64,000 bases of DNA from Loxodes magnus (taxonomy: Eukaryota; Ciliophora; Karyorelictea; Loxodida; Loxodidae), in the NCBI GenBank assembly GCA_946699065.1, contig CAMPDV010000683.1, forward strand, positions 62,001 to 126,000, given 5' to 3'. Shown here one piece after another: positions 5,760 to 45,089 of this stretch (within the stretch, counting starts at the first letter, position 1; every line of letters starts with the position of its first letter). The position numbers were made by a program, and so were the translations under genes. Under the pieces are notes generated by a model. That model was not told where the DNA came from and ran no database searches. It saw nothing but the letters and a program-made list of their open reading frames with translations.

Positions 5760-8060
5760 TTATATAGCCTTAGTTCTTGGAATTCTACAGGGCGATACTA
5801 TAGAGGTCTGATAATTGCTAAACTTGATCATAGTATTGAAATCCTTTTTTTCAGTTGGTAATGAAAAGAGAGCCTATTGTCGATGTTGAAAAATCAATAC
5901 TTTCTTAGTTCATTTTATAATAGAATTTAAAAAACTTTATTGCCATAAGGTGTTTGAAAGATAACCAGTTTAATCTATGAAAAATTACTTATTAATTGCT
6001 GAAGTTGCTGCTTAAAATGCTTTTCTTGAAATCATTCTCATACTTGATTCAATTCTATTCAAAACTCCAGTTTTTCCTTTCTGAATACACCATGGTACTA
6101 CCTCTACTCCATATTCTGCTTTAGGCAATGTAAAAAATCTGCATAAAGTTTTAAAATGTCAAGGAGTCACATTCTTATATCTCATAAGTTAAAAAAAAAC
6201 TTTTTCATTGCAAATAAATACTTGATCGCGACTTCTCTGCAATGAGGATTAAAATTATTCTTCTAATGTAGCATTACATTTAAATATGTTACTTTTTCCT
6301 TTTAAATAATTGATTAATTATCTAATCATAAATTTAAATTTTATGATTTCTAATGTTTCTTTAAAATTTAGATGCATTCAGATTTGATAAATTTTATCTT
6401 TAATTGTTGTTATGTAAAAATCTTACTTGTTTCATTTAATAACTCCTTCATCTACTTTGCAGTTTTGGAAAGAAGAATCAAATCATCTGCTCATCGTCTA
6501 CATGCGAAGCTAATATTCCAACCCTGGCATTTGAATCCCAATTAGGTACTTTTACTTTCCAAATATCTAATTACTACGTCATATGGTCCATGTGACTTTC
6601 CTTACATAACTCCATTGTTGTATTATAATGTTCTGGTGTTCTTTCCTCTATTTTAAATGAAGAATTTAGGTTTTTGTAAAAAGATTCTAAGGCTATTATT
6701 ATTCCAAGTGGTAGTTTAACTCTCTTAAGTTAATCAAACAAAAGTCTTCTTTCTATTGAATCAAACATTTTTTCAACATCTATCAGTGTTGCTATCAATT
6801 TAGTCTTACTTTTAACATTTTTCCGATAGTTATCAATTATTTGCTATATTATTCAAATTTATTAAGTTGTTTATCTAATTTGTATAAATCCCATTTATGT
6901 AGGGTGAATCAAATTTCTCTAATAAATCAGATTTTATAGTCTTTGTGTTTAAGCTTTATCATATAGTTTTATAATAATATTAATAAGAGAAGCAGGTAGT
7001 CAGTTTTTCCAGTCATCTTTATTTCCTTTTTTTAATATTGGAATTACCGCTAATGTATTTAACTCCTAAGGGATTCTTCCAAATCTTAACATATTATTCA
7101 AAAAAGAGTGAAGAATTATTAAAAAATATTATCCATCATATTTCAGAAATTCACCTTTTATTCAAGCTGAAACAGCTGCTTTTCCATTCGTAACTTCTTT
7201 TATCATTTTTTGTATTTCTTGTATGGTAAAAAGATAAAATCCTTATAAATATGAGAGTTGATAATCTTTAATTTCCTAAATACTATCTTATATTTTATCT
7301 ATTTTTTAATTACTAAGATTTATTTATTATTGAGTTAGATTAGAATGTTTGTTAAAAATAAATTCTTCCATGAATCAATGGATTTATTTTTGACTTCTTA
7401 ATTAAAGTTCATTTAATTTATTTTTTTAGGGTTTTTAATTTTCTTAGTATGTGAAAATATTTCTTTAGCATCTCCATTTAGAAGTAAAAGTTTCTTTTTT
7501 GCTTTGTTTTTTCAAATTTTCACAAACTAGACTTGAAGTCATTCAGAATGTCGTTTCACTTTTTCATGAATATTAGTTACTTATTAGTTTATTCTTCCAG
7601 ATATAATGTATGCTTCTTATATACTGAGTTAACCCTTTTAGGCCTACATATTTCTTAATAAAATCTCGAGGAAATGTGTTATAACTTGTCTGGAATAAAG
7701 GATCCTAATTTTAATCAGCATTGTATTAGATGTTATTTTTGATAAATTAATTTTAAACTTAAAGATTATCTTAATCTATCTAAAAGAATTCTAGATAAGT
7801 TAGCACGAAAGATTCTAAATATTTTTGACGATCTATTACATCTTATAACCTATTTATTTTATATTTCCTCAAATTCTTGCTCATCTTCAATTAATATCAT
7901 ATAAAATTAAGTTTTGTTTTATAAATCAATTTGCAAGAAAAAATTTTCTTTTTAAGCTATAATATCATCTTATTACTGTTTATCTTATAAAAGAATTGTT
8001 TTAAGAATTAAGTTTTTATCTTTAAATAATCTAGCAATTTTCAGTTGATATCATACTTTA
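5760..8060 (-). pseudogene. LINE ORF2 (reverse transcriptase), copy A
   Basis: Reverse transcriptase of a non-LTR retrotransposon, which copies its RNA at the target site. Read from high to low coordinates, the RT motifs occur in order: IPILKKGNKDDWKNWLPAS (motifs 1-2), QMGF, TLIDVEKMFDSIERRLLFDQL (motif 3), the Gln-Gly of motif 4 (VMQGKSHGP, Gln written TAA) and the catalytic WADDLILLS at about 6,470-6,493 (Trp written TGA). The region after the catalytic domain, LPKAEYGVEVVPW, lies near 6,100. The N-terminal side to about 8,060 also reads as protein, but I could not recognise an endonuclease there. Two or three frame changes (near 7,190, 6,620 and 6,560) suggest a decayed copy. It closely matches copy B at 34-35.6 kb. 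Confidence 0.85.
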
Positions 8061-8099
8061 TTAATAAATATAATTACAATCTTTAAAACATCAATCAAG

Positions 8100-9352: not shown

Positions 9353-10562
9353 TCAACTCGAAACTCTCCACTTTCTTATTGTCTTGTCATCCGCTCCCGA
9401 TACCAACCATCTATTATCAACATTCAATGCTATAGAAGATATATACAATGTATGTCTTTATAAAGTCTATATACACTCACCCTTATCAAAGTTCCATATC
9501 TTGATTGTTTTATCCCATGAGCCAGAAAATATAACACTTGAATCAACACTTAACTGAATACTTGATACAGTGCTTGCATGACCTTAAAGAGTACGAATAC
9601 ACTAACCAGAAGAGAAGTCCCATATCTTAATAGTACTGTCTCGAGAACCAGATATTATGTATCTATTATCCTTAGACACTATTACCGATAAAACTCAGTC
9701 TGAATGCCCAGTTAGAGTTCGCACAAGCTGGCCTGTCTAGAAATCTCAGATCTTTATAATTTTATCATCAGATCCCGATACAATATATTTAGAGTCATAA
9801 CAGATTACTACCGAGTAAATGTAATCAGTATGTCCCGTTAAAGTTCTTATGAGAGCACCATTGTGGAAATTTCAGATCTTGATCGTGTTATCGTAAGATC
9901 CTGATACGATATAGTTAGAGTCTAGAGAGATTACTACCAAGTAAACATGAGAAGTATGTTCTGTTAAAGTTCTTATGAGAGCACCATTGTGGAAATTTCA
10001 GATCTTGATCGTGTTATCGTAAGATCCTGATACGATATAGTTAGAGTCTAGAGAGATTACTACCAAGTAAACATGAGAAGTATGTTCTGTTAAAGTTCTT
10101 ATGAGAGTTCCAGTCTATAAATTCCAGATCTTTATGGTTGTATCACCAGATCCTGATACGATATAGTTAGAGTCTGAGGAGATTACAACCGATGAAACAT
10201 CATAAGTATGTCCTGTTATAGTTCTTTGGAGAGTACCTGTCTGGAAATTCCAGATCTTTATCGAATATTCAGGATCTCCTGAACCTGATACAATTCAATT
10301 CAGGTCATTTGATATGGCTACCGACCAAACACGTGAAGTGTCATTAATGACCTAGTCTAAAAAATATTAAAAAAATACCTTTACTTTGGTCATAACTGAT
10401 CTTATTTATTAGCTTTTAGTAGCATAAATTAGGCAGAATTTCATACTTTAAATGAAGTAGAGATATTTTCCCTAAAATATGGTTTCTCGCTCTTAGGAGT
10501 TTTCTTAAAAAAATACATTTAGTAAATTACTTTTCTTTTTTCTCCATTTCTTTTTTCACCAT
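9353..10562 (-). CDS. WD40-repeat protein with one 22-nt intron
   Basis: A 395-residue protein made almost only of WD40 repeats, a beta-propeller that serves as a protein-interaction platform. The ATG is at 10,562. A basic N-terminus of about 70 residues is followed by eight blades, each ending in the family signature (for example YIVSGSGDTTIKIW). After removing a GT...AG intron at 10,357-10,378 the frame is exactly continuous to a TGA at 9,353-9,355, placed just after the last blade (DDKTIRKWRVSS). In-frame TAA/TAG fall where WD40 repeats tolerate Gln. In-frame TGA falls at the invariant Trp of the IKIW signature in several blades. Two neighbouring blades are an exact 126-bp duplication, so the ancestor probably had seven. 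Partner and function are unknown. Confidence 0.85.
9841..10092 (-). repeat. Exact tandem duplication of one WD40 blade
   Basis: Two head-to-tail copies of 126 bp (42 codons), at 9,841-9,966 and 9,967-10,092, that look identical by eye. Each encodes one full blade, so the duplication keeps the frame and changes a seven-bladed propeller to eight. Confidence 0.85.
10357..10378 (-). other. 22-nt spliceosomal intron
   Basis: On the minus strand the sequence runs GTATTTTTTTAATATTTTTTAG. Removing it joins an open N-terminal frame starting at ATG 10,562 to the WD40 frame without a break; keeping it shifts the frame. It is pure A/T between the terminal GT and AG. Confidence 0.7.
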
Positions 10563-11636: not shown

Positions 11637-12485
11637 TCAACTGTACATGTCTTCATCTGAATCTATTTCAAACTGAGATAATTCTTCTTTCTCTTCAATA
11701 AGCTCATAGAATTGTTCTTCCATCTTCTTGTAATTTTTCTCCAGCTTTCTAAACAAATTCTAAAATCATTGTTGTCCTTTTAAAGCTATCTATTCTGTTA
11801 CTATTAATTACTTAGATCCTGTTTGATTAGTGTCACACTTGAATCATTTAATATCAGCTTCTGTAAGTACCTCCAAAGTAGTTACAATATAGCCTCCTCG
11901 ATGTTCCAAATTATTTACGGTGCTGCTCAAGCACTCTTCTTCACTTCGGACATTACCTCCAAAAATGTCTAGCCTTTTGACAACAATAGCAACTTTTATT
12001 AAGGGCTTGAATTAAAATTTTTATTCTGTCTACATTTTTTCAATTTCCATCTTTTCTGATTGAAGTTAGTTTTTTTTGATTGGCAATCGAATTTCTTCTT
12101 TAATTTTCTATTGATTTGCTTCTAGGTTTTTTTCTAATAGTTCAAATTAGGAAGTTAAGGCTTCAATTTAAAACTAAACTTTACTTACCAAGTCTTGATC
12201 TTCCTTTTTTTTATCTTAAAAAAGAAGCCGAAGTTTCAACTTTTCCGCCTTCAGGATCTATATTTCGGTATTAATTTTCTCAATTAATGAATAAAGCTAA
12301 ATAATGTCTTGCTCGTGGGGTTTCTCAAGCTTTTTCAGTTTGCTAGGAAATTCCTTATTTCCCAATCCTTAACAGGAATAGATTTATCTTTTTTGAATTC
12401 TTGGTTCTTGTTAGTTAACTGAGACTTAAGATTGATCTTTAAGGTTAGAATTCAAAGTTTAGATTCCCTCATTTTTTGTTAGCTT
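11637..12485 (-). pseudogene. LINE ORF1 (gag-like), copy D
   Basis: RNA-binding first protein of the non-LTR element. From about 12,485 down it reads as a long charged coiled coil (KLKKLEKPHEQDIIQLYSLI; EKMEIEKMQTEQK). It is followed in another frame by a perfect CX2CX4HX4C zinc knuckle at 11,950-11,991, CYCCQKARHFWRQC, its Gln written TAA and its Trp TGG. After the knuckle comes a weak match (YCNYFGGTYR) to the PxGxIY motif shared by the other copies. The acidic C-terminus (ELIEEKEELSQFEIDSDED) is back in the first frame and ends at a TGA at 11,637. Two frame changes therefore surround the knuckle, so this copy is probably dead. The start is unclear. Confidence 0.7.
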
Positions 12486-12489
12486 TCTC

Positions 12490-19599: not shown

Positions 19600-20689
19600 G
19601 GATATAAATAAATGAAAAGTTAATAAATTAAGAAGTAATTTTAATTTAAAGATAAGAAATAAAAGTTATCACTTGTGGAACTGAATTAAATTTTAAATCT
19701 ATTTATGAGCAAAAAGTTTAGCTTATTACTAATCTGAATATATTTCTACTTTAAGACTAAAATTATCTTTAAGTAATTATAAAATTTAATCAAAGTAGTA
19801 CTTTTTAGAATAGCTTTATTAATAATTAATACTTCTTTAAAATATTTAATTTATTCTTTTTTATTAACTTGTTACTCAAATATTGTAAATACTAAAGTAT
19901 AAAAATGTATACTATTTTTTTAATACTAAGCATACTAATTATTATCTTTACTTAGCATTTAATTTTTTAATAACTAAATGCATTTTAATATCTCTTCAAT
20001 CGTAAATAAAGTATTAAATATCTTATTTATTCTAAAAATTATAAGATATACCATAATTATTTGTATTTAATAAAAAGCATAACTTATTTTAAATAGAATA
20101 GTTAAAAAATTATTTAAAAGATATTGTTTAGTATCAAGAAATTTTATAAATTTCCATACTAAAAATATTTAGAGCCTTCAATTTTCTTATACAGTTAATC
20201 ATATATCTTTCTTATTTTATTCAAATACAAATTTTAAAATTATAATTAATAATGAATTTGCCTTAAGATATTTTGCTTTTCTTTTATTAAAAAAATAATT
20301 TTCGGCATTTTAAAACTTCTGAGATGGAAAAAGTTTATTTCTAATTTAATATTTTCACTTGATAAATTTTCTATTAAGGTACTGCGATTAACATGTCAAA
20401 AAAAGCTTTGATATTGAATTATTAGTCTGAAGTTTTTCAAGCAAATTTATTCCGTCTGAAAAATGTCTTATAGTATAAAACGCTGAGAAAAAACAAATTT
20501 TTTATTTTCACAAGATTTAACACTTAAAAATTAATCTAATAACATTCAAATTTTTTTAAATAAAATGCTATCATATAAATTCTTACAACAGAAAAAAATT
20601 ATAACCAAAAAATTGTATATAAAAAGCTTTTATAACAGTAACTTTATAATAAAAAATAATTACTTTTACAATTTTCCAATGCTTACTTT
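19600..20689. other. AT-rich, no supported gene
   Basis: Long AT-rich stretch with poly(A)/poly(T) runs. Short open frames are what this composition gives by chance. Confidence 0.45.
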
Positions 20690-23365
20690 TATTTTTATAC
20701 TCTTAAATTATTCTATCTTCTCTCTCATCACAAACATAATATTCAATCTCTCATTATTACTAAATCTCCACCTTTCCTTCACCATACTCATCCAACCTTT
20801 TAAAATATTTAATTAATAAATTATTACTCTTGTCAATCTTTCATATATCACATTCAATCTTTAATTTCTTAATTTTCTAAATACTTACTACCTTTTTTAC
20901 TTAAATATAATTATATCACAACATATTTTTATCTTACATACATAAACTCAACAATACTCTCACTCAATCATTAAAATATATTCATATATAAACATAAGCA
21001 TATAGTAATTAGTAATTAGTAACATAACAGTATTATAGAATAGTTTAATTATGTATAATTACATAATAGTATAGTAATATAGAAGTATAATAGTATAACA
21101 GTGTAGTAATATTGTAGTATAGTTGTAAATAGCATAGTATTGTAACATAGTAGCATACTAGTATAGTAGAATATTGATTATTACAATATTTAAGTTCATT
21201 AATTTAATAAATATATTAATTTAATTATTATATCAAATTTAATCAACATCTCAACTCATACTTCTCTACAAGTTCTACTCACTCATCTTAATATTGTCAG
21301 TTATACAATTCCTCAATCTCAATCCATACTCAACATAAACCTGATCTCAATCCACCTACTTTATTAATAATTAATCATTAAATTGTTACTTACATATCCA
21401 ACAGATTCATCTGAACACATCAACCTCGAGATATTCCATCTTCTCAAGTTACCACATGAATCTCCAGAATAGATCCATCTTGAATCCTTTGATAATGCCA
21501 ACGACTGAATTCCAAATTTGTGACCACTTAGAGTTAATAAACACTAACCAGTTGAAAAAGACCATATCTATATTGTTCTGTCATATGATGTTAATACTAT
21601 ATAGCTAGAGTCAAAGGAGATTACTACCGATGTATCTTTATGATAATTTCCCTATAAAGTTCTTAGGAGAGTACCATCGTGGAAATTCCAAATCTTGATA
21701 GTTTAGTCTCATGATGCTGATACTATATAGCTAGAGTCAAAAGAGATTACTACCTTTGTAACTTCATCAGTATGTCCTTCTAAAGTTCCTAGGAGAGTAC
21801 CATCGCGGAAATTCCAGATCTTTATTGTTTTGTCATCAGATGCTGATACTATATAACTAGAGTCAAAGGAGATTACTACCGAGTTAATAGAAGAAGTATG
21901 TCCCTTTAAAGTTCTCAGGAGAATACCATTATAGAGGTTCCAGATCTTTATAGTTTTGTCACCAGATGCTGAACCTGATACTATATAGTTAGAGTCATGG
22001 GAGATTACTACCGAGTTAACTGGACGAGTATGTCCCGTTAAAGTTCTTAGGAGAATACCATTGCAGGAATTCCAAATCTTTATTGTTTGGTCACGTGATG
22101 CTGATACTATATAGTTAGAGTCAAAGGAGATTACTACCGAAGTAACTTAATCAGTGTGACCTTCTAAAGTATTTATTAAGGCAGATGTTTAATAATCTCA
22201 GATCCTAATTGTTTTATCCCATGAACCAGTGATGATATATTGATTGTCAGGAGAGATAGCTATTGAGCTGATGTTAGAGGAATTACCTTTAAGTTCATGA
22301 GGATATTCAGTTGTTATATCGGAGAGATTAGCATTAGTCAATGTACAATCGATAAACTTGGTATTTCTTAAATTGCATTGATGGAAACTTGAATTAGTGA
22401 AGTCACAGTTAGTAAATGTCACGTCCGATAAATCTGCTTGAACTAATCTCATGTTGGCTAAATTTTATTATGTAAACTTAACATTCATGTAGTTAAGTAT
22501 CGTTATCACATTCGATGATACCTACGATACTTCCTATGATGTTCTTGATAACTCTAACACCTAATTTAATTTATTGGCAAGTTATTGGTTAGATCCTTAA
22601 GATAACTATAATAAGACTGACGTCTAAAGTGCTAAGTTTTAGTTATTTAAAGGATGTTACTTCAAAAACTAAATATCGATATTAGATTATAGTAGTTGGT
22701 TTAAACTTTGATTTAACTAATCGAACATTTGAGTATTGGAATTAACTAAGGCTTGCTTTGTCAAGATAGGTTGCTCTTAAAGTTATTGAATTTAAAAGTT
22801 CTATTACTCAAGCTAAAGTTCATGGATATGTTGAAGTAACTGTTAATCATTACTTTAAATAGTACTTGAAACTTCTTTGCTTAATTTTAACAATGATAAG
22901 TCTTTTTATATTAGTTACTCTTAAACTTATTATTAGTCTTAGTTTTACTATATTATATTTCCTTAACCTTAATATAAGAATTAATATAATTGGTTTTCTT
23001 ATATTTCTTATTATTAAAGATCCTATAAATGTTCTTTTTGAAACTGTTTTTATTACTATAGACCTTAACATAAGCCTCTTATTACATTATCTTAACTAAA
23101 ATAAGATTCTATTTACTAACTGGCTTTTTACTGAGTTAATATCTAACCCTATAAATGATCTCTCAGAAAATTGAAGACATTTAAGAAATACTTCTGAATA
23201 TTATATCGCAAACCTTAATCATTCAAATTCATATCAGATTCTTCCTTTACCACATTGATTTCTCTTAGTATTTCCGTAAATTACTACTATTATTCTTACG
23301 GAAATTGCTAATGTTGATGTGCCTACTGCTGTATATGCTAGCGCTATTACTATTATTATTAAATG
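20690..23365 (-). repeat. Segmental duplication, copy A
   Basis: About 2.65 kb similar to 37,697-40,333 in the same orientation, with a constant offset of 16,971 bp over the pentapeptide region. It covers most of the RING/WD40 gene and its 3' flank, including a TAG/TAT-rich low-complexity patch (21,000-21,190). Identity is highest in 22,140-23,365 and lower in the WD40 blades and 3' flank. Confidence 0.85.
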
Positions 23366-23974: not shown

Positions 23975-24105
23975 GGTTAATAACCAAAATAAAGGAGGCC
24001 AAATCATAAAAACTTTCCTAGACGTTGTCCTAAGTGTTGCCCTAGGTGTGACACTCTCCTAACAAAAATCTGAAAAGAGTAAATAACTCAAGGGGAAAGA
24101 CACTG
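23975..24105. other. Junction sequence beside the broken 18S, with 12-bp repeats
   Basis: Immediately beyond the broken end of the 18S 5' part the sequence is not rRNA. At about 24,018-24,055 it holds three tandem degenerate 12-mers (CCTAGACGTTGT, CCTAAGTGTTGC, CCTAGGTGTGAC). Origin unknown. Confidence 0.5.
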
Positions 24106-25570: not shown

Positions 25571-25911
25571 AGAGTCTCAGCAGATCGTAAGGCAAGCTTA
25601 CTCTCATGCGTACAACCCCAGGTTAATACTTAGTGGTCTACAAAGAATTAATTCTATCTACATGTATGTGATGAGTCGTCCTTATTCTGTTAACTGACAT
25701 GGGGAGGGTTTGGGGATATAAAAAGTATTGTTTTCATAAGTAGATAGAAGTCGTCGCTCCTGATTAGATTCTGACTTAGAGGCGTTCATTCATAATATAT
25801 GGAGATGGTAGCGTAGCCACACGGGCTGCTCAACCAATGGCGATACCAGAGATCTGGGCCAAAGGTTCCTCTCGTTGTTGGACTACTGTGTCGATGTAGT
25901 GATCAGTAGGG

Positions 25912-25958
<47 letters not shown>

Positions 25959-28411: not shown

Positions 28412-28489
28412 ATCACAAGTACATATACTCAGTTTTTTCACTTGGTAAGAGAATTCTTATTCACTTACATTTGTATTTTATATGATACT

Positions 28490-28636
28490 GAAAGGGACAT
28501 ACCTTGTTTTCCCCAAGGTGCCTGTTGCGTTGGGAAACATGATGACTCACGGAATTCTGCAATTCGCATTGAATTTCGCACTTCGCTGCGTCCTTCATCG
28601 ACGCCAGAGCCTAGGATCCATCGCTGGGGCTTTTGT
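28490..28636 (-). rRNA. 5.8S rRNA
   Basis: The minus strand contains GCGATGGATCCTAGGCTC, CGATGAAGGACGCAGCGAA and ATTGCAGAATTCCGTGAGTC in order, the conserved 5.8S core. Ends are approximate. It is flanked by a short ITS2 (about 28,412-28,489) and ITS1 (about 28,637-28,723). Both spacers are under 100 bp, unusually compact. Confidence 0.93.
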
Positions 28637-28723
28637 TTTGTTTAGGTTTATATATTTGATAAAATGAAAAAGCAGCATAAAGCTGTAAATAGATTTGAGT
28701 TTTGTAATGTTTGATATAAATGT

Positions 28724-29499
28724 TAATGATCCATCCGCAGGTTCACCTACGGATACCTTGTTACGACTTCTCCTTCCTCTAAGTGATAAGGTTCACTTAA
28801 CTTCCCATTAGTCTGAAAGGTTCACCTGATCTCTCGAAATTGGTAGAAACAACGGGCGGTGTGTCCAAAGGGCAGGGACTTAATCAGTGCAAGCTGATGA
28901 CTTGCGCTTACTAGGAATTCCTAGTTGATGACCAAGAATTGCAAGGGTCAATCCCAACTATGACGCAGTTACGAGGTTGCCGGAGTAGCTATACTTAGGA
29001 ACTCATTGGCTGCGTCAGTGTAGAGCGCGTGTGGCCCAGGATATCTAAGGGCATCACAGACCTGTTATTGCCTCACACTTCCTCCAACTAAAAGCTGGAA
29101 GTCCCTCTAAGAAGACAACTTCCTCGGATAGAAAGAGTCTCATTTAGCAGGTTGAAGTCTCGTTCGTTATCGGAATTAACCAGACAGATCACTCCACCAC
29201 TAAGAACGGCCATGCACCACCACCCATAGAATCAAGAAAGAACTCTCAATTTATCAATCCTTACTATGTCTGGACCTAGTAAGTTTCCCCGTATTGAGTC
29301 AAATTAAGTTTCAGGCACCACTCCTTGTGATGCCTTTCCTTCAATTCCCTTAAGTTTCAGTCTTACGACCCCCAAAACCCAAAGATTTTGATTTCTCGGA
29401 AGGTGCCGAGAAGATTTATACGATCTCCTCAATCCCAGTCGGCATAGTTTATGGCTAAGACTAGGACGGTATCTGATCGTCTTGGATCCCTTAACTTTA

Positions 29500-29542
<43 letters not shown>

Positions 29543-29722
29543 AGTTGGTCTTCAGTAAATCCAAGAATTTCACCTCTGACTACTAAATATCAATGCCTCC
29601 AACTGTCCCTATTAAAGATAGTAGATAGTCTCGCCAAGAATAGCCACTAGTATTATTCCAGCTGCGGTATTCAGGCAAGAGTCTATCTTAAACACTCTAG
29701 TTTCCTCAGTTAAAGGGCCCGC
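28724..29722 (-). rRNA. 18S rRNA, 3' part only (about 1,000 nt)
   Basis: The 3' end at 28,724 is the universal GTAGGTGAACCTGCGGATGGATCATTA. Upstream come the 3' domain and the central blocks (GAGGTGAAATTCTTGGATTT, AACTTAAAGGAATTGA-type). The upstream end breaks near 29,722, just before TTTAACTGAGGAAACTAGAGTG, and continues into poly(A)-like sequence leading to a gag-like retroelement. With the 5' part at 24,106-24,540, roughly the middle 250-300 nt of the 18S are missing. This unit cannot make a complete 18S from within the window. Confidence 0.93.
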
Positions 29723-30370
29723 CAAAAAAATTAAATAAATTTTAACCGATTTAATAATAAGGAATAGAACACTTTAATGTTAAAACAAATTGGAACAGCT
29801 AAATGAGAAAAATATAAAAAATCATGAATCCAATTTATATGCAAGACTTAATATAAACACTTATAATAAGAGTAAACATTGCAAGAAAATTAAAATAAAA
29901 AGAAGAAGTTGAGCCTAATTGGAGATAAAGAAACTCACTTCTGCGGATAATATAGAAACATCACATGAAAAAAAATGGTAAGAGATAGAGTTCAAATAAT
30001 GAAAACAAGATCTTAATTTTTAAGAATAAGATGAAAAAATTGGGTGAAGCAAGATTAAATAAGCACAGATATTAAAAGAAAACTGCAATAATTCCTACAA
30101 GAATCCTAATAGAGTGGTTGTATTTCAATGCAAATAGAGAAAATAAATTAAAAAACATAAATAAAATAAAAGGGAATAAGAAAATTATGCAGTATTTGCA
30201 AAAATTGATGGTACCTATGACGAAAATGTCCGCAGCAAGAGAAAAATAAGAGCAATCTGAAGATCGATCTGATATAAAGCAATAATTTTCTTTCCATCAA
30301 GCGATTGAAAGATCTGAAGAAAAAAACAAGAATAACTGGATAGGAGCTTGAGTTCTATTAGAAAAAGGAG
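29723..30370 (+). pseudogene. LINE ORF1 (gag-like), copy F
   Basis: Begins right at the broken 18S end with AT-rich sequence. The plus strand then becomes purine-rich and reads as Lys/Gln-rich protein. At 30,188-30,229 lies CSICKNWWYLWRKC, the family's knuckle with its His replaced by Tyr (TAC) and three Trp, two written TGA. A basic helix (LSIKRLKDLKKKTR) follows. Loss of the zinc-binding His suggests an inactive copy. It points away from the 18S, which it may have interrupted. Confidence 0.55.
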
Positions 30371-32009: not shown

Positions 32010-33152
32010 AAAATACTTATCTAATTATGTGACTGACTTTGAACTTGCTAAATTGTACAAATAAAATAAAATTCACTAGTACATTCCTAATAGAGAAAAC
32101 AAAAGCTTGAATGGAAATTTGAGACATGTGTTCAGAGTTAATTGGGATTGATTAATCAAGACAATTTGGCTTAGAAAATATTTTAGGTAGGCTTATTTAC
32201 TTCTTAGGATCATATTGCCTGGGTAAGGAGGTAATAGTAGTACTAAACAAGAGAAGCATCTGGTTTATATTTAAGCTAAAATAAATGATTAAGAAAATAT
32301 TTCCAAGTATAAAATAAATTTTAGGCTATATACTTTTAACAAATTTAAAATGATTTAATAATTAAAGTATTAGACTATCTTATTTTATATTTTTTCTAAG
32401 TTCATTATTTATAATCTACTTAATGCAAACTCTAATATAGGCTAAAATAAAATTAATAGCTCTAAATAAATAACTACATGTTCCTTCAATGATATATCCT
32501 TTTTATCTAATTAAATGATATTTAAATATGAAAATTAAACTGTTGGAAGAGATTCATTATTTAGCTAAATACTAAAGAAAAAATCTAACTATAATCAAAT
32601 TATTTAACTTCTTTAAGAACTTAAATTTAAATTATTCATTTATATCTTAGTCGATAATTTGTTTGTCTCTACCATTTAAAATATAAATACAAATACTATT
32701 CAAAGATAATTATCTTAAAGATAAGATAAATAGACTATCAAATATCTTATTTAATTTTGAAAGATAGATTACTAAATTCTTTTATTTATTCCTTAAAAAT
32801 AAATTTCCTCTATCTGCAGTTACTTTATTTTACGATTTTCATGTTTAATATATATTTATCTTAAAAGGCTGAATTAAAAAGATAGCTAAATAGTAGATAT
32901 TAAAAACTAAGATTTTTTCACTTTCCTTTATCTTTAGGAAAAAGCAACTTCTTTTAATGGTTTTTAAATAAAAAATAAAAAAAGTATTTTTTCTATCCTT
33001 TTAATTTTAAATAGACTAGCTATTTTTTATTTTTATAATAACATTTAAATTAAAAAAAATTTATTTCTCTTCGAACAAAAATGTTAAATAAGCATAGCAT
33101 TTAAATAATTTAATAGCTTAATAAGATATTAATCTTTTATTATATATATAAA
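32010..33152. other. AT-rich, no supported gene
   Basis: Between a LINE remnant and a SINE-like element. No protein-like or RNA-like signal seen. Confidence 0.45.
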
Positions 33153-33560
33153 ATGGATGTAGGCCGCGTCAGACAAATTAGTAGGTAATCTGGTGCAGTG
33201 TATACTGCATTGCGAGTAATCTCGCACTAGATGCCACTACGGGGAAGGGTGGATAAGCTCCGTTGAGACATACCTAACTTACCCCGAGGGTTCTCTCTAG
33301 CATTATGAAAGTTTGACTGACGAGCCTTCTAATTACCAACTTAATAACTAATTCTTATTTTGGCCTTATTCAAGAAGACTGAAGCATTTGAATCAAAATT
33401 TAAGAATAAATGTTGATAAGAAGATTCCTCATTTGGAGAAGCTGACATAACTCATCGGACCTCTATAATTTTAACAAGAAACATAAGAACATTTTCCTTA
33501 ATATTAAATATTAATATTGAAAGAGCTGCGTGCCAAGGAGGTGCTACGCGCTCTATAATC
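33153..33560 (+). mobile_element. SINE-like element, copy 1
   Basis: A 408-bp element whose head (33,153-33,330) is much more GC-rich than the surroundings. The head is full of short hairpins (GCGAG/CTCGC; CCAC/GTGG). An AT-rich middle follows. The end is the hairpin tail AGAGCTGCG...CGCGCTCT at 33,521-33,560, shared with the LINE end at 37,525-37,565. A second copy lies inverted at 62,669-63,073. The head has no clear tRNA A/B boxes and I cannot name its parent RNA. Mobilisation by the LINE is inferred from the shared tail. Confidence 0.7.
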
Positions 33561-33599
33561 ATTTTTATTATTAAAATAATTAAGTTTTGCAATTTTCGA

Positions 33600-34060
33600 G
33601 GATTTTCACCTCTTCATGCCGATCCCAGATTGCTCCGGGATTAAAAAAAGGTTTATATGTCTCTACTTCTCTCCTACCCATTTGTTCTTGTTGTCTCTAA
33701 CTATGTCTTCAGTTCAGCAAAGGTTTCTTCCTATAAATATTTCCAAGCTAGTTCATGAATAGTCTCTCTCTAATTTTCCTTTGCTATAGTTGTCTCATTT
33801 TCTTTTGCTACGCTTCCTGCTTCCTCTATTTTCTCCAATACTAGTTCTTAAAGTTTAGGAATTAATCACATCTTCTTCATAGGTGTTTCTCTGAATTACA
33901 ATAGTAGCACTTTTTAACTACTTTGATTAGCTTAGCCTTCTTCTTCTTGTCAATTACCTCTATCAGCATTGGATCGCCTCTTTGCTCATTAAGTTTCATT
34001 TGCTGTTGCAGCTTCTCTTCTATTTCTTCCCAACCTGTTATAAAAATCAGTTCCTTAAGT
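33600..34060 (-). pseudogene. LINE ORF1 (gag-like), copy G, fused behind a reverse transcriptase
   Basis: The minus strand from 34,060 reads a charged helix (GWEEIEEKLQQQMKLNEQ), then at 33,868-33,909 a perfect CX2CX4HX4C knuckle, CYYCNSEKHLWRRC, with Trp written TGA. A basic Gln/Lys/Arg-rich stretch and GNIYRKK follow, the family motif. It begins out of frame with, and overlapping, the end of the reverse transcriptase at 34,047. An ORF1 normally precedes ORF2, so this is either two elements joined head to tail or a rearranged element. The 3' end abuts the SINE-like element. Confidence 0.65.
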
Positions 34061-35575
34061 GTTTATAATATATACATATCATTATATGATCAAAACTGTC
34101 ATATTTTCCACATTTACAATAAGGATTATCAATAGAATAATGACGGTCTTATAATTCCTTCCGAAAATTGTAAAACTGGGCTCTCATTTTATAAATGCTA
34201 TTAATTTCTCTTACGTAATGCTTATTAAGTTTTGTATATGTTATTTCTGGAAACTAAGACAAATTTTGAAATTATTTAGCAAAAATATTAGCTGTAGTCA
34301 TTCTGTTGATTCTTTAAATTGAATCTCTATAAAATCTAGCTTTTATTTAGTTTTTAACATGTATACTAAATATATTTAAATTTCTGTTTATTTTTTCATC
34401 CCTTAAATCAATATTATAAAACTGAGCCATCTTCATCACGTCATTATAGTATTAGTAACCTTCATTTCAGTTATTTTAAAATATTATTCCTATTGTCTAA
34501 TTATTTTGTTCCAAACTTTCTTTTCTGATTTTGTAAAAGAATTTGAAAAACCTTAGAGTCATAATATGCTTAAAGGGAAGTCAGTTTAAATCTACATAGC
34601 ATGATTCATTAAAAGATCTTGATTCTGTTTAGAAAGCTTTTCTTAATATGAATCTCATACTTGAATCAATTTTATTTAACATTGAAGTAATACTTTTTTA
34701 AACAGTTCAAGGTACTAATTCTCCTCCATATTCCGCTTTAGGTAAAGTAAAGAGTCTAAAAAGGTTTTTAAAAAGTCAAGGTGTCACGTTTTTATATCTC
34801 ACCAATTAATATACAGCTTTCTTTACTGCAGTTAGATATTTAAACCCTGCTTCCTTACAGTGATTAATGAGGTTCTTTTTTTAATGTAGTAATATTCCCA
34901 GATATGTGACTTATTGTTTTTAAAGGATTGGTTTCTCGTTAATTTATAAATCTCGTTTGGTTTATTTTCCTTTCTTTTTCAGAAATTATATAGCCTCACA
35001 ATTGGTAATATTTATATTTAAGCATGCCCATCTAAAAACTCTACTTGTTTCGTTTATTAGATTCTACATGCCTCTTTCCGATTTAGATAGAAGGATTAAG
35101 TCATCTGCCCATCCTCTACATGCAAAGCTATTATCAAAGTTATTGCATTTAAATCCAAATACATTAGCTTTGTTTTCTAAATATCGAATTACAATATCAT
35201 AATACAACAAGGCTAATACTGGTCCATGTGAACTACCTTGGATTACTCCATTATTATATTAAAGTCTTCTTGATTATGTTCCGTCTATTAGAAAAGATTA
35301 ATTTATGTTATTATAAAATGATTATAAAGCATTTATAAGGCCTAGAGGTAATTTTAACCTTTTTAGTTAATCAAAGTATAATTTTCTCTCTATAGAATCG
35401 AACATTTTTTCCACATCTATCAAGGTTGCTAGTAATTTAGTTTTCCCCTTTGGTTATTTACGAAATAAGTCTATTATCTACTAAATAACTAAAATTTACA
35501 TAGTTGTTTGTTTATTTTTCAAAAATCCCATTTGATTTTAATGCAGTAAATTTCTTTCGTATATAAAAATTTAAT
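34047..35575 (-). CDS. LINE ORF2 (reverse transcriptase), copy B
   Basis: One uninterrupted frame of about 510 codons under the reassigned code. In order: QNQMGFLKNKQTTMQ (about 35,535), ATLIDVEKMFDSIERKLYF (motif 3), GVIQGSSHGPVLALLYYD (motif 4, Gln written CAA), the catalytic WADDLILLS with TGG at 35,109-35,111, YLGILLH, LPKAEYGGELVPW, and the C-terminal zinc site YCKCGKYDSFDHIMIC, ending at a TGA at 34,047-34,049. The C-terminus is intact; the 5' end stops at about 35,575, before motifs 1-2, a typical 5' truncation. It is the best reference copy of the family here. Confidence 0.88.
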
Positions 35576-36195: not shown

Positions 36196-37107
36196 ATGCT
36201 TGAAGGTTTCAAGTCAGGTTTCTATGCCATCTCTTCCTAAGCCAAAAAGAAAGGGAGGAAGCAAGAAATCAAGTCTTAATAATCTTTATAATCTTCTCTA
36301 TCACAACCTTAACCAGCACTGAACTAATAACTTGGAATATAACAAAACGAATGAAAGCCAACCTTGAAGAATATACACACGGAAACTCCAACCTCAAGCG
36401 AAAAACTGAGGAAACAGATGAAGTCTGTTCTCCACCAGGAGGTATCAGAGTTCAACCCTTCTGGCCAGATGAGTATGGAGTAGCTCATCAAAGTGGTACT
36501 GAACCTCCAGGAAGAGGTCAAGAGATTGAAGAAGGACAATGATATGCTGATGGCAAAGCTAGACCTAGCAGAAGGAATTGAGTCAAGACTTATGTCATTG
36601 GAACGAGATATTAACGTCTTTTGGAATATCTCACAAAGTCAGACTAACGAATCCTAAAATTAGCTTTAGAAAAAGACTGAACTCGATAACAGACTCGGAA
36701 AAGTAGAAGAGAAATCGTAAACTTTTAAGAAAGAGTAAAGCGAAACTGGAGCTATACAAATGGAAATTGAAGCCTAGAAAGAGCAAACAAACCAAGGAAA
36801 ATAATTCAAAATAAAAAAGAAATGTTTCTGCTGTGGAAGCGTATGACATTTTTATCGGAAGTGTTAGAACTTCTAATAGAAATAAAGAAACTATTGGATA
36901 AAAGAACAATAAAAGAAGAAAAAAGAAGAAGCAAGAATGAAAAGAATGTATTGCAATCCGGATGGTTCAATATACAAGATTAAGATGGAACCAAGGCAAG
37001 TTAAAGGAGGGAAAACCTGGAAAAATCCGAGTTCCCAATCTCGCTAAAATTAGGCGACCCGAACTTTTATATTTAACAGCAGGGAGCATGAACTGCTATA
37101 TTCCTGA
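36196..37107 (+). CDS. LINE ORF1 (gag-like), copy H, intact
   Basis: A complete 303-residue frame from ATG 36,196 to TGA 37,105-37,107. The N-terminus is basic and Gln/Ser-rich. A Leu/Glu/Lys coiled coil covers roughly residues 75-180 (LNLQEEVKRLKKDNDMLMAK; KLDLAEGIESRLMSLERD). The zinc knuckle CFCCGSVWHFYRKC is at 36,823-36,864, a perfect CX2CX4HX4C with Trp written TGA. About 35 residues later is NPDGSIYK, the family motif. Codon use is less AT-biased than in neighbouring genes. This is the clearest full-length ORF1 in the window; the expected role is binding and condensing element RNA. Its ORF2 is mostly deleted. Confidence 0.82.
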
Positions 37108-37480: not shown

Positions 37481-37524
37481 CTAAAATTTTTTTAAATAAA
37501 ATTTTGATACCAAAATATTATTAT

Positions 37525-37565
37525 AAAGAGCTGCGCACCAACGAGGTGCTACGCGCTCTATAATC
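37525..37565 (+). repeat. LINE 3' terminal hairpin
   Basis: AAAGAGCTGCGCACCAACGAGGTGCTACGCGCTCTATAATC: arms AGAGC/GCTCT and GCGCACC/GGTGCTACGC fold into one hairpin with a short loop. The same 40-nt end occurs at 33,521-33,560, 16,654-16,695 (minus) and, more diverged, 62,669-62,707 (minus). It is probably the recognition end for target-primed reverse transcription. Confidence 0.7.
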
Positions 37566-37696
37566 AAATTTATTTATTTATTATTATAGCAGAAACTTTC
37601 ATACCAATAAACTTTTATAATTTAAAAAATAATTACTATTAAAACTTTGTAATTTTTCTTCGATAAAAAATATTCAAAACATTTTTTAAACTGTTT

Positions 37697-40333
37697 TTTT
37701 AATTTTTATACTCTTAAATTATTCTATCCTCTCTCTCATCATAAACATTTTATCTCATACTTAATATAACTACACTTTCCTTTACCATACTTATCCACCC
37801 TTTTAAAATACTAAATTAATAAATTATTACTCTTTTCAATTTTTTTCAAAAATCATTAGCCCATTCATACTCTCTTATCACTTACTACCTTTTACTTAAA
37901 TATAATTATATCACAATATACTATTATCTAACTTGCACAAACTCACGTAATTAAAGCTTTCAATAATTAAATATATTACATATAAATATAACCATCTAGT
38001 AGCTTAGTAACATAACAATATAATAACTTAGTTTAACAATTTAGTTGTATAGTAGTATAGTAACATAATAACAGTATATCAGTATAGTAGTATTATAGTA
38101 TAGTTGCATAGTAGTATATTAGTATAACATAGTAACTTAGTAACTTAGTAAGTATATTGATTATTTAAATATTAAGTTCATTAATTTAATAAATATATTA
38201 ATTTAATAAGTATATAAAGTTAATAAACATCTCAACTCATACTTCTATCCAAGTCCTACTCACTCATCTATATGTTGTCAGTTATACATTTCCTCAATCT
38301 CATTCCATAATTTGAATATACCTAATTCCAATCCACCTACTTTATTATTAATTATTAAATTGCTACTTACCTATCCAACAGATAAATCAGAACACATCAA
38401 CCTCTATACATTTCATCTTCTCAACTCACCATATTCACCCCCAGAATAGATCCATCTTGAATCCTTTGATAATGCCAACGAACATATTGAATCTCTATGA
38501 CCACTAAGAGTTAATACACATTAACCATCTGAAAAAGACCATATCTTTAGTGTTAAATCATCAGATGCTGATATTATATAACTAGAGTCAAAGGAGAATG
38601 CTACCTAGGTAACAAAAGAAGTATGTCCCTCTAAAGTTCTTAGGAGAGTACCATCGCGGAAATTCCAGATCTTTATTGTTTTGTCAAATGATGCTGATAC
38701 TATATAACTAGAGTCAAAGGAGATTACTACCGAGAAAACAGAAGAAGTATGACCCTTTAAAGTTCTTAGGAGAACACCATTACGGAAATTCCAGATCTTT
38801 ATTGTTTAGTCTCATGATGCTGATACTATATAGCTAGAGTCAAAGGAGATTACTACCGAGTTAACATAAGATGAGTGACCTTTTAGAGTTCTTTAGAGAG
38901 CACCATTGTGGAAATTCCAGATCTTTATAGTTCCGTCATCAGATGCTGATACTATATAGCTAGAGTCATTGGATATTACTACTGATCTAACATAAGAAGT
39001 ATGTCCCTTTAAAGTTCTTAGGAGAGTACCATCGTGGAAATTCCAGATCTTTATAGTTCTGTCATCAGATGCTGATACTATATAGTTAGAGTCAAAGGAG
39101 ATTACTACCGAAGTAACTTAATCAGTGTGACCTTCTAAAGTATTTATTAAGGCAGATGTTTAATAATCTCAGATCCTAATTGTTTTATCCCATGAACCAG
39201 TGATGATATATTGATTGTCAGGAGAGATAGCTATTGAGCTGATGTTAGAGGAATTACCTTTAAGTTCATGAGGATATTCAGTTGTTATATCGGAGAGATT
39301 AGCATTAGTCAATGTACAATCGATAAACTTGGTATTTCTTAAATTGCATTGATGGAAACTTGAATTAGTGAAGTCACAGTTAGTAAATGTCACGTCCGAT
39401 AAATCTGCTTGAACTAATCTCATGTTGGCTAAATTTTATTATGTAAACTTAACATTCATGTAGTTAAGTATCGTTATCACATTCGATGATACCTACGATA
39501 CTTCCTATGATGTTCTCGATAACTCTAACACCTAATTTAATTTATTGGCAAGTTATTGGTTAGATCCTTAAGATAACTATAATAAGATTGATGTCTAAAG
39601 TGCTAAGTTTTAGTTATTTAAAGGATGTTACTTCAAAAACTAAATATCGATATTAGATTATAGTAGTTGGTTTAAACTTTGATTTAACTAATCAATCGTT
39701 AGATTATTGAAGTTCACTAAGGCTTGCTTTGTCAAGATAGGTTGCTCTTAAAGTTATTGAATTTAAAAGTTCTATTACTCAATCTAAAGTTCATGGATAT
39801 GTTGAAGTAACTGTTAATCATTACTTTAAATAGTACTTGAAACTTCTTTGCTTAATTTTAACAATGATAAGTCTTTTTATATTAGTTACTCTTAAACTTA
39901 TTATTAGTCTTAGTTTTACTATATTATATTTCCTTAACCTTAATATAAGAATTAATATAATTGGTTTTCTTATATTTCTTATTATTAAAGATCCTATAAA
40001 TGTTCTTTTTGAAACTGTTTTTATTACCATAGACCTTAACATAAGCCTCTTATTACATTATCTTAACTAAAATAAGATTCTATTTACTAACTGGCTTTTT
40101 ACTGAGTTAATATCTAGCCCTATAAATGATCTCTCAGAAAATTGAAGACATTTAAGAAATACTTCTGAATATTATATCGCAAACCTTAATCATTCAAATT
40201 CATATCAGATTCTTCCTTTATCACATTGATTTCTCTTAGTATTTCCGTAAATTACTACTATTATTCTTACGGAAATTGCTAATGTTGATGTGCCTACTGC
40301 TGTATATGCTAGTTCTATTACTATTATTATTTT
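37697..40333 (-). repeat. Segmental duplication, copy B
   Basis: Partner of 20,690-23,365 in the same orientation. The match ends at about 40,333 inside the ATT-rich (Gln-coding) tract and is replaced by the satellite. Confidence 0.85.
38371..40333 (-). pseudogene. RING/WD40 gene copy B, N-terminus replaced by satellite
   Basis: Same protein as the gene at 21,319-23,820 from the Gln-rich coil onward: coil, pentapeptide repeats (nearly identical at 39,169-39,423) and seven WD40 blades. The blade loops differ from copy A, while the pentapeptide zone and coil hardly do. In the last blade, copy A has RRWN with TGG and copy B has TGA at the same codon, direct support for TGA as Trp. The RING-like start and about the first 160 codons are absent; the (TTA)n satellite begins at the poly-Gln tract. 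A GTAAGT follows the last blade at 38,370. The copy has no start of its own unless the satellite is translated. Confidence 0.75.
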
Positions 40334-43300
40334 AATGATTTTGTAAATTATTTTTATTATTATTATTATTTTTATTAATATTATTATTATTATTACTATT
40401 ATTAACTTGTATACTATTTTATTAATATTATGATTATTATTATTATTATTATCATGTATATTATTTTTAATTATATTATTATTATTGATACTATTATTTC
40501 TTTTATTTTATTTAAATTATTTTTATTATTATTACTATTTTTATTTTTAATATAATTACTATTATTATCTTGTATTTTTTTTTTAATATTATTATATGTT
40601 TTATTAATATTATTATTATTATTACTATTATAATCTTGTATACTATTTTTATTATTTTTTTTATTTTTATTATTTTTATTATTTTTATTATTTTTATTAT
40701 TTTTATTATTTTTATTATTTTTATTATTTTTATTGTTATTATTACTATTTTTATTATAATTATTATATTTTTATTAGTTTTTTTAATATTATTATTATTG
40801 GTACTATTATTAACTTGTATACTATTTTTATTAAGATTATGATTATTTTTATTACTATTATTGTTATTAATATTATTATTATTTTTATTAATTTTATTTA
40901 TTATTATTATTTTTATTAATATTATGATTATTATTATTATTGATATCTTGTATATTATTTTTAATGATATAATTATTATAAATATTACTATTTTTATTTT
41001 TATTATTATTATTATTACTATTATTATTTTAATCATCTTGTATATTATTTTTATTTTTATTATTATTATTATTATTATTTTTATTAATATTATTATTATT
41101 ATTACAATTATTATATTGTATACTATTTTTAAAATTATTATGACTATTTCTATTATTTTATTTATTTTGTATATTATTTTAATTATTATTACTATTTTTT
41201 TTTTTTAATTATTATTACTATTATTGTTATTAATATTTTTATTAATATTATTATTATTAAAACTATTATTTTTAATTTTATTTTTATTATTTTTATTATT
41301 ATTATTGATATTATTACTATTTTTATTATAATTATTATTATTATCTTGTATTTTATTTTTATTATTATTTTTATTAGTTTTATTAATATTATTATTATTA
41401 TTACTATTAGTGACTTGTATACTATTTTTATTGATATTATGATTATTACTATTATTGTTATTAATATTATTATTATTATATTTTTTTTTATAGATATTAT
41501 GATTATTATTATTACTATTATTATCTTGTATTATTTTTTAATTATTATTATTATTAGTTTTATTATATTATTATTACTATTACTAACTTGTATACTATTT
41601 TTATTATTTTTTTTATTTTTATTATTATTATCTTGTATACTATTTTTATTAATTTTATGATTATTATTATTGTTTTTATCTTGTATATTATTTTATCTAT
41701 TATTACTATTATTATTTTCTTTTATTATTATTGTTACTATTATTATTTTATAAACTATTTTATTTATATTATTATTATTAAAACTGCTATTTCTTTTATT
41801 TTATTTAAATTATTTTTATTATTATTACTATTTTTATTTTTATTATAATTACTATTATTATCTTGTTTTATATTTTTAGTATTATTATTATTAGTTTTAT
41901 TAATATTATTATTATTATTACTATTATTAACTTGTAAACTATTTTTATTGATATTATGATTATTACTATTATTGTTATTTTTATTATCATGTTAATATTA
42001 TTATCTTGTAGATTATTATTATTATTACTATTATTGTCATTAATATTATTATTGTTATTATTATTTTTTTTATTATTATTATTTTAATTAATATTATGAT
42101 TATTATTATTATTGATATCTTGTATGTTATTTTAATTATTATTACTAATTTTATTTTCTTTTATTATTATTATTACTATTATTAACTAGTATACTATTTT
42201 TATTGATATTAAGATTATTACTATTATTCTTATTAATATTATTATTATTATTATTGCTTTTTTATTGATATTATGATTATTATAATTACTATTATTATCG
42301 TTTTTTTTATTTTTAGTATTATTATTATTTTAATTATCTTGCATATTATTTTTAATAGTATTATGATTATTATTATTTTAATTATCTTGTATATTATTTT
42401 AATTATTATTAATAATTTAAATTTTAATTATCATGTATATTATTTTTATTATTATTATTATTAATATTATAATTATTATTACTATTATAATCTTGTATAT
42501 TATTTTTATTAGTATTATTATTATTAAAACTATTATTTCTTTTACTTTATTTGAATTATTTTCATTATTATTATTGTTATTATTACTATTTTTATTATAA
42601 TTACTATTATTATCTTGTATTTTATTTTTATTATTATTTTTATTAGTTTTATTAATATTATTATTATTATTACTATTAGTGACTTGTATACTATTTTTAT
42701 TAATATTATGAATATTTTTATTACTATTTTAATTAATATTATTATTATCATTATTTTTTTTATTATTATTATTTTAATTAATATTATGATTATTATTATT
42801 ATTGATATCTTGTATATTATTTTTATTAGTTTTATTAATATTATTATTATTATTACTATTATTAACTTGTATACTATTTTTATTGATATTATGATTATTA
42901 CTATTATTGTTATTAATATTATTATTATTATATTGCTTTTTTATAGATATTATGATTATTATAATTACTATTATTATCTTGTTTTTTATTTTTAGTATTA
43001 TTATTATTTTAATTATCTTGTATTCTATTTTTATTATTATTATTATTTATATTATTATTATCATTACTATTACTAACTTGTATACTATTTTTATTAATTT
43101 TATGATTATTATTATTATTATCTTGTATACTATTTTATCTATTATTACTATTATTATTTTCTTTTATTATTATTATTACTATTATTATTTTATAAACTAT
43201 TTTATTTATATTATTATTATTAAAACTGCTATTTCTTTTATTTTATTTAAATTATTTTTATTATTATTACTATTTTTATTTTTATTATAATTACTATTAT

Positions 43301-45089
43301 TATCTTGTTTTATATTTTTAGTATTATTATTATTAGTTTTATTAATATTATTATTATTATTACTATTATTAACTTGTAAACTATTTTTATTGACATTATG
43401 ATTATTATAATTACTATTATTGTTATAAATATTATTATTATTATATTTTTTTTTATAGATATTATGATTATTATAAATACTATTATTGTTATTAATATTA
43501 TTATCATTATATTGCTTTTTTATTTATATTATGATTATTATAATTACTATTATTATCTTGTTTTTTATTTTTAGTATTATTATTTTTTTAATTATCATGT
43601 ATATTATTTTTATTATTATTATTATTTTTATTATTATTATCATTATTATTACTAACTTGTATACTATTTTTATTATTTTTTTTATTTTTATTATTATTAT
43701 CTTGTATACTATTTTTATTAATTTTATGATTATTATTATTGTTTTTATCTTGTATATTATTTTATCTATTATTATTATTATTATTTTCTTTTATTATTAT
43801 TATTATTATTATTATTTTATAAACTATTTTATTTATATTATTATTATTAAAACTGCAGAAAAAAAATGGATTAATCTCTTCGACTCTCAAAAAATTAACT
43901 TAGAAACCTAAAGAGAAAAGCGGCAAAAGAAATTTAGAAAAAATAATAACAATAGGAGGAGTCAAGCTCATCTTCAGAAGGTAAAGTTATGGTATGATAA
44001 ATAGAGATAAGTTAACCTAAAAACGAAACTAATAAAAAACTTTAAATTTAATTAGACCAAATGTAAAAAGTAATCAAAAATTATGAAGAAACAACTTACA
44101 ACTTAGGCGAAAAAATGCGGGAACTAATGAGTAACATAGAAGATTAGAACAACGAATTACTTATACTTAGAAGATAACTTATTTGTAGCAAATTAATAAC
44201 GGAGAATAACTCTGAACTTAATCATAATAAAATTTTAAATACGACACAAAAATGGAAATAGAAAAAATACCAATAGAATTAAAAGCAGAATTGAATCCAG
44301 AAAAAGAAATGATTGCTACAAGTTTCATTAAAAGATTAGAAAATATAGAAAATAAATTATCATAAAAAAGAACGAAATAAAGACAATAATACAAACTTTG
44401 TTGATGTTGCAAATCAAATCAACATATTTTAAAAAACTGTTGATAATGAAAGAAAATAAACGAATAAGAGCAGAAAAGAACATGGAGACAACTCAATAAA
44501 CTATGAATAACTCCAACAGGGATCTACAAATAAAAGCTTTTTGCAAGACTACTTGAACGGTTACAGTGGTAACCTTCCACTTAATAAAAAGGTCGTGGAT
44601 CACACCCACGTTAAAAAAACTGTCCGCAGGAACTGGTTGCAATTCCAGAGAATGCAAAACTCTACTAACTTTAAGTATATTATTATTATTATTATTATTA
44701 AAACTGCTATTTCTTTTATTTTATTTAAATTATTTTTATTATTATTACTATTTTTATTTTTATTATAATTACTATTATTATCTTGTTTTATATTTTTAGT
44801 ATTATTATTATTAGTTTTATTAATATTATTATTATTATTACTATTATTAACTTGTAAACTATTTTTATTGATATTATGATTATTATAATTACTATTATTG
44901 TTATAAATATTATTATTATTATATTTTTTTTTATAGATATTATGATTATTATAAATACTATTATTGTTATTAATATTATTATCATTATATTGCTTTTTTA
45001 TTTATATTATGATTATTATAATTACTATTATTATCTTGTTTTTTATTTTTAGTATTATTATTTTTTTAATTATCATGTATATTATTTTT

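What the first reader, a model, noticed from the sequence alone, without database searches (positions are those of the whole stretch)
6482..44440. All three stop codons are sense, shown by paralogous columns inside the window
TGA and TGG swap at the same conserved Trp: reverse-transcriptase WADD (TGA at 6,491-6,493 in copy A, TGG at 35,109-35,111 in copy B), the zinc-knuckle H-x-W-R column (TGG in copy D, TGA in copies F and G), and the last WD40 blade RRW (TGG near 21,450 in gene A, TGA near 38,420 in gene B). The universal Gln of RT motif 4 is TAA in copy A and CAA in copy B. TAG falls at tolerant Gln positions of WD40 blades. Yet TGA also sits exactly at the natural end of several genes (9,353; 37,105; 21,319). 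So TAA/TAG mean Gln, and TGA means both Trp and, near the 3' end, stop. Codes of this type are known for karyorelicts and Condylostoma; the lineage here is inferred.
Basis: partly seen in the sequence, partly recalled or inferred. Interest (0 to 1): 0.85.

Follow-up and report, generated by a model that had tools for sequence, protein, structure and literature searches.

The report
Ciliate that reads stop codons
The DNA comes from a Loxodes ciliate whose genes read two stop codons as glutamine and the third, UGA, as tryptophan inside genes but as stop at their ends; the evidence here is good, but this genetic code is already published for this organism.

Summary
The claim is right in substance and already known. 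The window lies in a 705,730,643-base assembly, the size of the published Loxodes magnus macronuclear assembly (706 Mbp); its eRF1 is 431/436 identical to Loxodes striatus eRF1. Loxodes uses NCBI table 27: UAR = Gln, UGA = Trp or stop. In three window WD40 genes the hallmark Trp column is TGG in 16 and TGA in 6 of 22 blades. Over 30 family loci it is TGG 59, TGA 48, other 2 of 109 distinct blades, while the terminal codon is TGA in 26 of 27 copies. Outside proteins have Trp there in 718 of 727 blades. Two eRF1 genes hold 41 TAA/TAG; Gln fits best. Decoding tRNAs exist: UUA (14 of 16 places sampled), CUA (2 of 12), and 66 tandem tRNA-Trp(CCA) genes with a 4-bp anticodon stem. Corrections: RT copy A is frame-broken, one zinc-knuckle claim fails, two of three "natural ends" are unverified. 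TGA = Trp was tested in one gene family only. Possibly new: the tRNA-Trp array.

The parts
9353..10363 (-). WD40 gene 1: 8 blades in one frame, 5 internal TGA, last codon TGA (9353-9355); the 5' limit is where I began to read
   Evidence: Pfam WD40 7 stretches, E 5.4e-73, with TAA/TAG/TGA masked as X
9998..10000 (-). TGA at hallmark WD40 Trp
9872..9874 (-). TGA at hallmark WD40 Trp (blade duplicate of 9998)
9746..9748 (-). TGA at hallmark WD40 Trp
9353..9355 (-). terminal TGA after RKWRVSS; TGA in 26 of 27 distinct family copies
21319..22800 (-). WD40 gene A, part read (7 blades); TGA at hallmark Trp 22198-22200; first TGA after the last blade at 21319-21321 (end not verified)
38278..40338 (-). 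WD40 gene B, part read (7 blades), segmental duplicate of A (20687-23360 vs 37697-40331, 88.8%); TGA at 39169-39171 and 38413-38415; next in-frame TGA 38278-38280
6302..6658 (-). RT copy A, 3' piece: W of WADD is TGA (6491-6493), Gln of NNGVMQG is TAA (6602-6604); frame broken upstream
   Evidence: RVT_1 15.5 bits with stops as X, 24.5 bits with stops as Q/W, both under the cut-off of 29.6
34750..35558 (-). RT copy B: W is TGG (35109-35111), Gln is CAA (35238-35240)
   Evidence: Pfam RVT_1 E 2.6e-16 with stops as X
11950..11991 (-). zinc knuckle C-x2-C-x4-H-x4-C, H-F-W-R with TGG (11959-11961)
33868..33909 (-). zinc knuckle, H-L-W-R with TGA (33877-33879)
36823..36864 (+). zinc knuckle, H-F-Y-R; TGA is just before the His (36844-36846)
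44399..44440 (+). zinc knuckle, H-I-L-K; no Trp or TGA in that column

Best explanation
The window is DNA of a Loxodes ciliate, most likely the L. magnus macronuclear assembly, using the karyorelict nuclear code (NCBI table 27). UAA is read as Gln by a cognate UUA tRNA and UAG as Gln by a cognate CUA tRNA. UGA is read as Trp inside genes, most likely by a near-cognate tRNA-Trp(CCA) whose anticodon stem has 4 pairs instead of 5 (U-C mismatch at the top). UGA close to the mRNA 3' end is recognised by eRF1 and stops translation. Shown here: codon usage at conserved columns, the tRNA genes, the eRF1 sequence, the gene-end pattern. Inferred from the literature: that the 4-bp tRNA does the UGA reading, and that nearness to the poly-A tail switches UGA to stop.
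For: Lineage: eRF1 431/436 and 415/436 identical to Loxodes striatus eRF1; assembly of 705,730,643 bases against 706 Mbp for the L. magnus MAC. UAR = Gln: 28 TAA and 13 TAG codons scored in two eRF1 genes against 116 of 119 outside homologues (3 dropped by length); Gln best for both (TAA +12.3 nats, next Ser -38.6; TAG +1.5, next Ala -16.1); 7 of 7 control codons return their own residue (CAA too, at -4.9); columns 183, 264 and 399 are Gln in 116 of 116 outside sequences. UGA = Trp: 48 TGA, 59 TGG, 2 other of 109 distinct blades at the hallmark column, which is Trp in 718 of 727 outside blades. UGA = stop: terminal codon TGA in 26 of 27 WD40 copies; both eRF1 genes have TGA where the L. striatus protein ends. 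tRNAs: TTA anticodon in 14 of 16 sampled places of a pattern found 189 times against 11 for the reversed control; CTA anticodon on a Gln body in 2 of 12 places; 66 tRNA-Trp(CCA) on C148:135001-175000, 4-bp stem by U-C mismatch. Published for L. magnus: UGA the only stop and also Trp.
Against: No RNA, ribosome or peptide data here. TGA = Trp was tested only in one repetitive gene family and in mobile-element pieces; requests for universal families (PF00118, PF00579) did not complete. The WD40 loci were picked by likeness to gene 1, several are identical copies, and all are paralogs, so counts are not independent and the TGA share is biased. Neither eRF1 gene holds an internal TGA. Between WD40 genes A and B, codons facing TAA/TAG are never CAA/CAG (0 of 8) and TGA faces TGG in 1 of 3; in the RT pair TAA/TAG faces CAA in 1 of 12 and 3 of 8. 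So in-window support for Gln is thin; it comes from eRF1. Some TGA in the WD40 copies lie in columns with no Trp in other copies, two of them at an Arg column 19 codons before the end. Diversity by codon position shows no clear break at the terminal TGA. Gln charging of the UUA tRNA is inferred from its body.
Confidence: 0.96

Rival explanations
1. Only UAA/UAG are reassigned (Tetrahymena-type code, table 6); TGA always stops, and the TGA at Trp columns are decayed copies (TGG to TGA).
For: TGG to TGA is a likely decay step in AT-rich DNA; RT copy A is frame-broken; two WD40 copies carry TGA at an Arg column.
Against: Each of the 30 WD40 loci has at least one TGA at the hallmark Trp among 3 to 6 motif-matched blades in one frame; 48 of 109 distinct blades carry it and only 2 carry anything but TGG/TGA, where decay should also leave other changes (my argument); the terminal column stays TGA in 26 of 27 while some internal columns swap; a 4-bp-stem tRNA-Trp array exists; the published code of L. 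magnus.
Confidence: 0.02
2. Condylostoma-type code (table 28): all three codons are both sense and stop.
For: All three are sense here.
Against: The lineage is Loxodes, published as UGA-only stop; both eRF1 genes and 26 of 27 WD40 copies end in TGA; TAA is sense 14 codons before the eRF1 stop (position 423 of 437). No survey for genes ending in TAA or TAG was made.
Confidence: 0.02

Closest known systems
Karyorelict nuclear code, NCBI table 27 (Loxodes, Parduczia)
   Same: UAR Gln, UGA Trp or stop by context, UGA-terminated genes; stated for L. magnus in PMC11441545 (section 9 read)
   Different: Nothing found that differs.
Condylostoma magnum code, table 28 (PMC4967479, passages)
   Same: All three stop codons are sense; termination by context
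   Different: There all three also terminate; here only TGA was seen at the gene ends examined (two eRF1 genes, 27 WD40 copies of which one has TGG).
Blastocrithidia code and 4-bp-stem tRNA-Trp(CCA) (PMC12153298 and PMC13092985, passages)
   Same: [quoted passage not shown] cognate UUA and CUA tRNAs; changed eRF1 at human Ser70 (Gly there; Ala in Loxodes by my reading)
   Different: UAR is Glu and UAA the stop there; Gln and UGA here.
Amoebophrya sp. ex K. veneficum (PMC12005148, passages)
   Same: A tRNA-Trp(CCA) whose unpaired bases are U26 and C42, the same bases and positions as in the Loxodes array
   Different: One such gene of 7 there; a 66-gene tandem array here.

Membership tests
NCBI table 27 (karyorelict) | Organism is a karyorelict | tested here: met
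   eRF1 431/436 to Loxodes striatus; Loxodes is in Karyorelictea; assembly size
NCBI table 27 (karyorelict) | UAA and UAG = Gln | tested here: met
   eRF1 columns; cognate tRNAs
NCBI table 27 (karyorelict) | UGA = Trp inside genes | tested here: met
   one gene family only
NCBI table 27 (karyorelict) | UGA = stop at gene ends, and the only stop | tested here: inconclusive
   TGA at the ends tested; that no other codon ever stops was not tested
NCBI table 27 (karyorelict) | Coding UGA depleted just before the stop | tested here: inconclusive
   Trp columns -5, -18, -47 and -89 carry no TGA in 27 copies, -173 and -215 are mostly TGA; but 2 copies have TGA at -19 and 2 at -30, and columns are inherited together
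[quoted passage not shown]
[quoted passage not shown]
   needs a reporter or ribosome assay
NCBI table 28 (Condylostoma) | UAA and UAG also terminate genes | not tested
   no survey of gene ends was made

The most novel reading that the evidence does not exclude
The UGA-reading tRNA-Trp (4-bp stem) has been amplified into a large tandem array (66 genes, mostly at 241-base spacing, in the 40 kb examined), beside three 5-bp-stem tRNA-Trp genes and one degenerate copy among the 40 places scored, so that gene dosage sets the balance between Trp and stop at UGA.
Probability: 0.3. Interest if true: 0.5.

Novelty: already known. Interest (0 to 1): 0.2.

Why it matters
Codes without a dedicated stop show how a codon can mean both an amino acid and stop. 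That is already established for this group. The window adds a within-family contrast (TGA and TGG swap at some internal Trp columns, TGA is nearly fixed at the end), and the genome holds a tRNA-Trp array that makes a dosage test possible.

Tried and rejected
Rejected: a standard code; the Tetrahymena-type code with decayed TGA; the Condylostoma code (see rivals). RT and zinc-knuckle columns were set aside as main evidence, since the copies are decayed or disagree. Codon-position diversity before and after the terminal TGA gave no clear contrast. A Pfam scan in six frames of two 10-kb stretches on the array's contig (L073, L076) found no domain in which to test TGA. In one search two WD40 genes and the RT copy A piece were given in wrong frames; they were redone. 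A 40-kb part of the contig was taken to count the array; the array may reach further.

My error: the protein query was one frame off (it should have ended at 10363). still gave 215 matches through DNA likeness; its stop counts are meaningless and unused. Its 30 loci (L012-L041) were re-read in the right frame by flanking residues. L012 is the window's own copy. In one search identical blades were dropped and blades not fitting the flank motif were not counted; 27 distinct of 30 copies were kept. The query was translated with TGA as Trp, so the outside set was found with it.

Literature limits: Seah et al. 2022 and Swart et al. (eLife RP93502) were seen only as citations in the papers named. 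For the tRNA-Trp array in print I ran; no title, abstract start or passage that I saw mentions it. I did not read those papers whole, and supplements were not open to me, so it may well be reported.

Full report
What the window is. It is bases 62001-126000 of contig C683 of a 705,730,643-base assembly in 7843 contigs. The published L. magnus macronuclear assembly is 706 Mbp (PMC11441545, passages). A search with the genome's eRF1 returned the UniRef eRF1 of Loxodes striatus as the top hit: 431/436 identical for one paralog, 415/436 for the other. Loxodes is in Karyorelictea. The species name rests on assembly size and is inferred; the genus is shown.

Checking the listed columns. Most are as stated. 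Three points need correction. RT copy A is decayed: its W-A-D-D and its upstream part lie in different frames and 6 residues are missing against copy B, so its TGA could be decay. The zinc-knuckle column is TGG in one copy and TGA in one; the other two of four carry Tyr and Leu. The ends at 21,319 and 37,105 are in-frame TGA codons without any homologue end to compare.

UGA = Trp. The best evidence is WD40. In the three window genes (22 blades) the hallmark column is TGG 16, TGA 6, nothing else. 9 of 11 TGA lie in columns that hold TGG in another blade; by my reading a tenth does so after allowing for an insertion; the eleventh is the end of gene 1. With all three stop codons masked as X, Pfam finds 7 WD40 stretches in each of the three genes. 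In 30 family loci of the genome, using only flanking residues to find the column, 109 distinct blades give TGG 59, TGA 48, TTG 1, CGA 1; the loci were chosen by likeness to gene 1 and are paralogs. In 120 outside proteins the same flank motif gives Trp in 718 of 727 distinct blades.

UGA = stop. After RKWRVSS the codon is TGA in 26 of 27 distinct copies and TGG in one, whose frame seems shifted beyond it (by eye). Trp columns 5, 18, 47 and 89 codons before it carry no TGA in 27 copies; 131 before it is 24 TGG and 1 TGA; 173 and 215 before are TGA in 25 and 23; 257 before is 17 TGG and 7 TGA. This fits the published depletion of coding UGA before the stop. Against it, two copies have TGA 19 codons before the end, where the others have Arg (or Lys), and two have it 30 before; and columns are inherited together, so it is not a strong count. 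Both eRF1 genes have TGA exactly where the L. striatus protein ends.

UAA and UAG = Gln. The two eRF1 genes have 15 TAA + 6 TAG and 13 TAA + 7 TAG in 437 codons. Scored against 116 outside eRF1 sequences with the Loxodes one left out, Gln is the best residue for TAA (28 codons) and TAG (13 codons), and 7 of 7 known codons used as controls return their own residue. The TAG score is low in absolute terms (+1.5), as is that of CAA (-4.9). The paralogs swap CAA with TAA and TAA with TAG. In the window itself support is weaker: between WD40 genes A and B no TAA/TAG faces CAA/CAG (0 of 8); in the RT pair 1 of 12 and 3 of 8 do.

Decoders. A 13-letter anticodon-arm pattern with TTA occurs 189 times against 11 for its reversed control; of the listed places I fetched 16, and 14 are tRNAs with a TTA anticodon on a Gln-like body. 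Two of 12 further places carry a CTA anticodon on the body of tRNA-Gln(CTG); the other 10 are Gln(CTG). tRNA-Trp(CCA) occurs in two forms: three genes on C110 with a full 5-bp anticodon stem, one degenerate copy on C7736, and on C148 a tandem array with a U-C mismatch at the top of the stem. In C148:135001-175000 ARAGORN finds 66 tRNA-Trp(CCA), 58 of 65 spacings being 241 bases; 32 of 32 copies in one 10-kb stretch are identical over the tRNA. No UCA-anticodon tRNA was seen, but 40 of 131 candidates were scored, so its absence is not shown. Loxodes was already reported to have the 4-bp form (PMC13092985 and PMC12005148, passages), and UGA readthrough by such tRNAs was shown in other species (same passages). 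In eRF1 the place of human Ser70 is Ala (my reading); that site is tied to UGA readthrough in Blastocrithidia (PMC12153298, passages).

Mechanism, step by step. UAR read by cognate tRNAs: genes shown, charging inferred. UGA read by the 4-bp tRNA-Trp: gene shown, action inferred from other species. UGA stops near the transcript end: end pattern shown, the role of poly-A nearness inferred from PMC4967479 and PMC11441545.

Verdict. Interest is low; the tRNA-Trp array is the one detail that may deserve a look.

Noticed in passing
G000:C148:155434-173067 (L074, L075): Tandem array of tRNA-Trp(CCA) genes with a 4-bp anticodon stem: 66 found, mostly at 241-base spacing.
   Followed up: partly
L042:719-791 and 1494-1566: A tRNA-Met(CAT) and a tRNA-Trp(CCA) lie about 700 bases apart and share acceptor, D and most of the T arm; an Arg(CCT) relative lies on the same contig. 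Suggests anticodon-arm exchange between tRNA genes.
   Followed up: no
L080: A tRNA with a Pro(CGG) anticodon on the body of tRNA-Gln(CTG).
   Followed up: no
window 24005-29874: One broken rDNA unit on the minus strand: 3' part of SSU, 5.8S, LSU over the whole model, spacer, then the 5' part of the next SSU; the SSU middle seems absent on both sides (my reading of the alignments).
   Followed up: partly
window 40316-58780: An 18.5-kb degenerate TAT/TTA triplet array, about 8% GC in most of it.
   Followed up: no
window 33523-33553 and 37528-37558: A conserved hairpin (0 expected by chance) near pieces of mobile elements; by eye similar ones near 16660 and 62670. A longer inverted pair 33138-33572 / 62656-63090 at 80%.
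   Followed up: partly
window 9353-10363, 21319-22800, 38278-40338; L012-L041: A large WD40 family (215 matching stretches with an off-frame query) with near-identical 42-residue blades and a few hypervariable columns, resembling fungal allorecognition WD40 genes (recalled, not tested).
   Followed up: no
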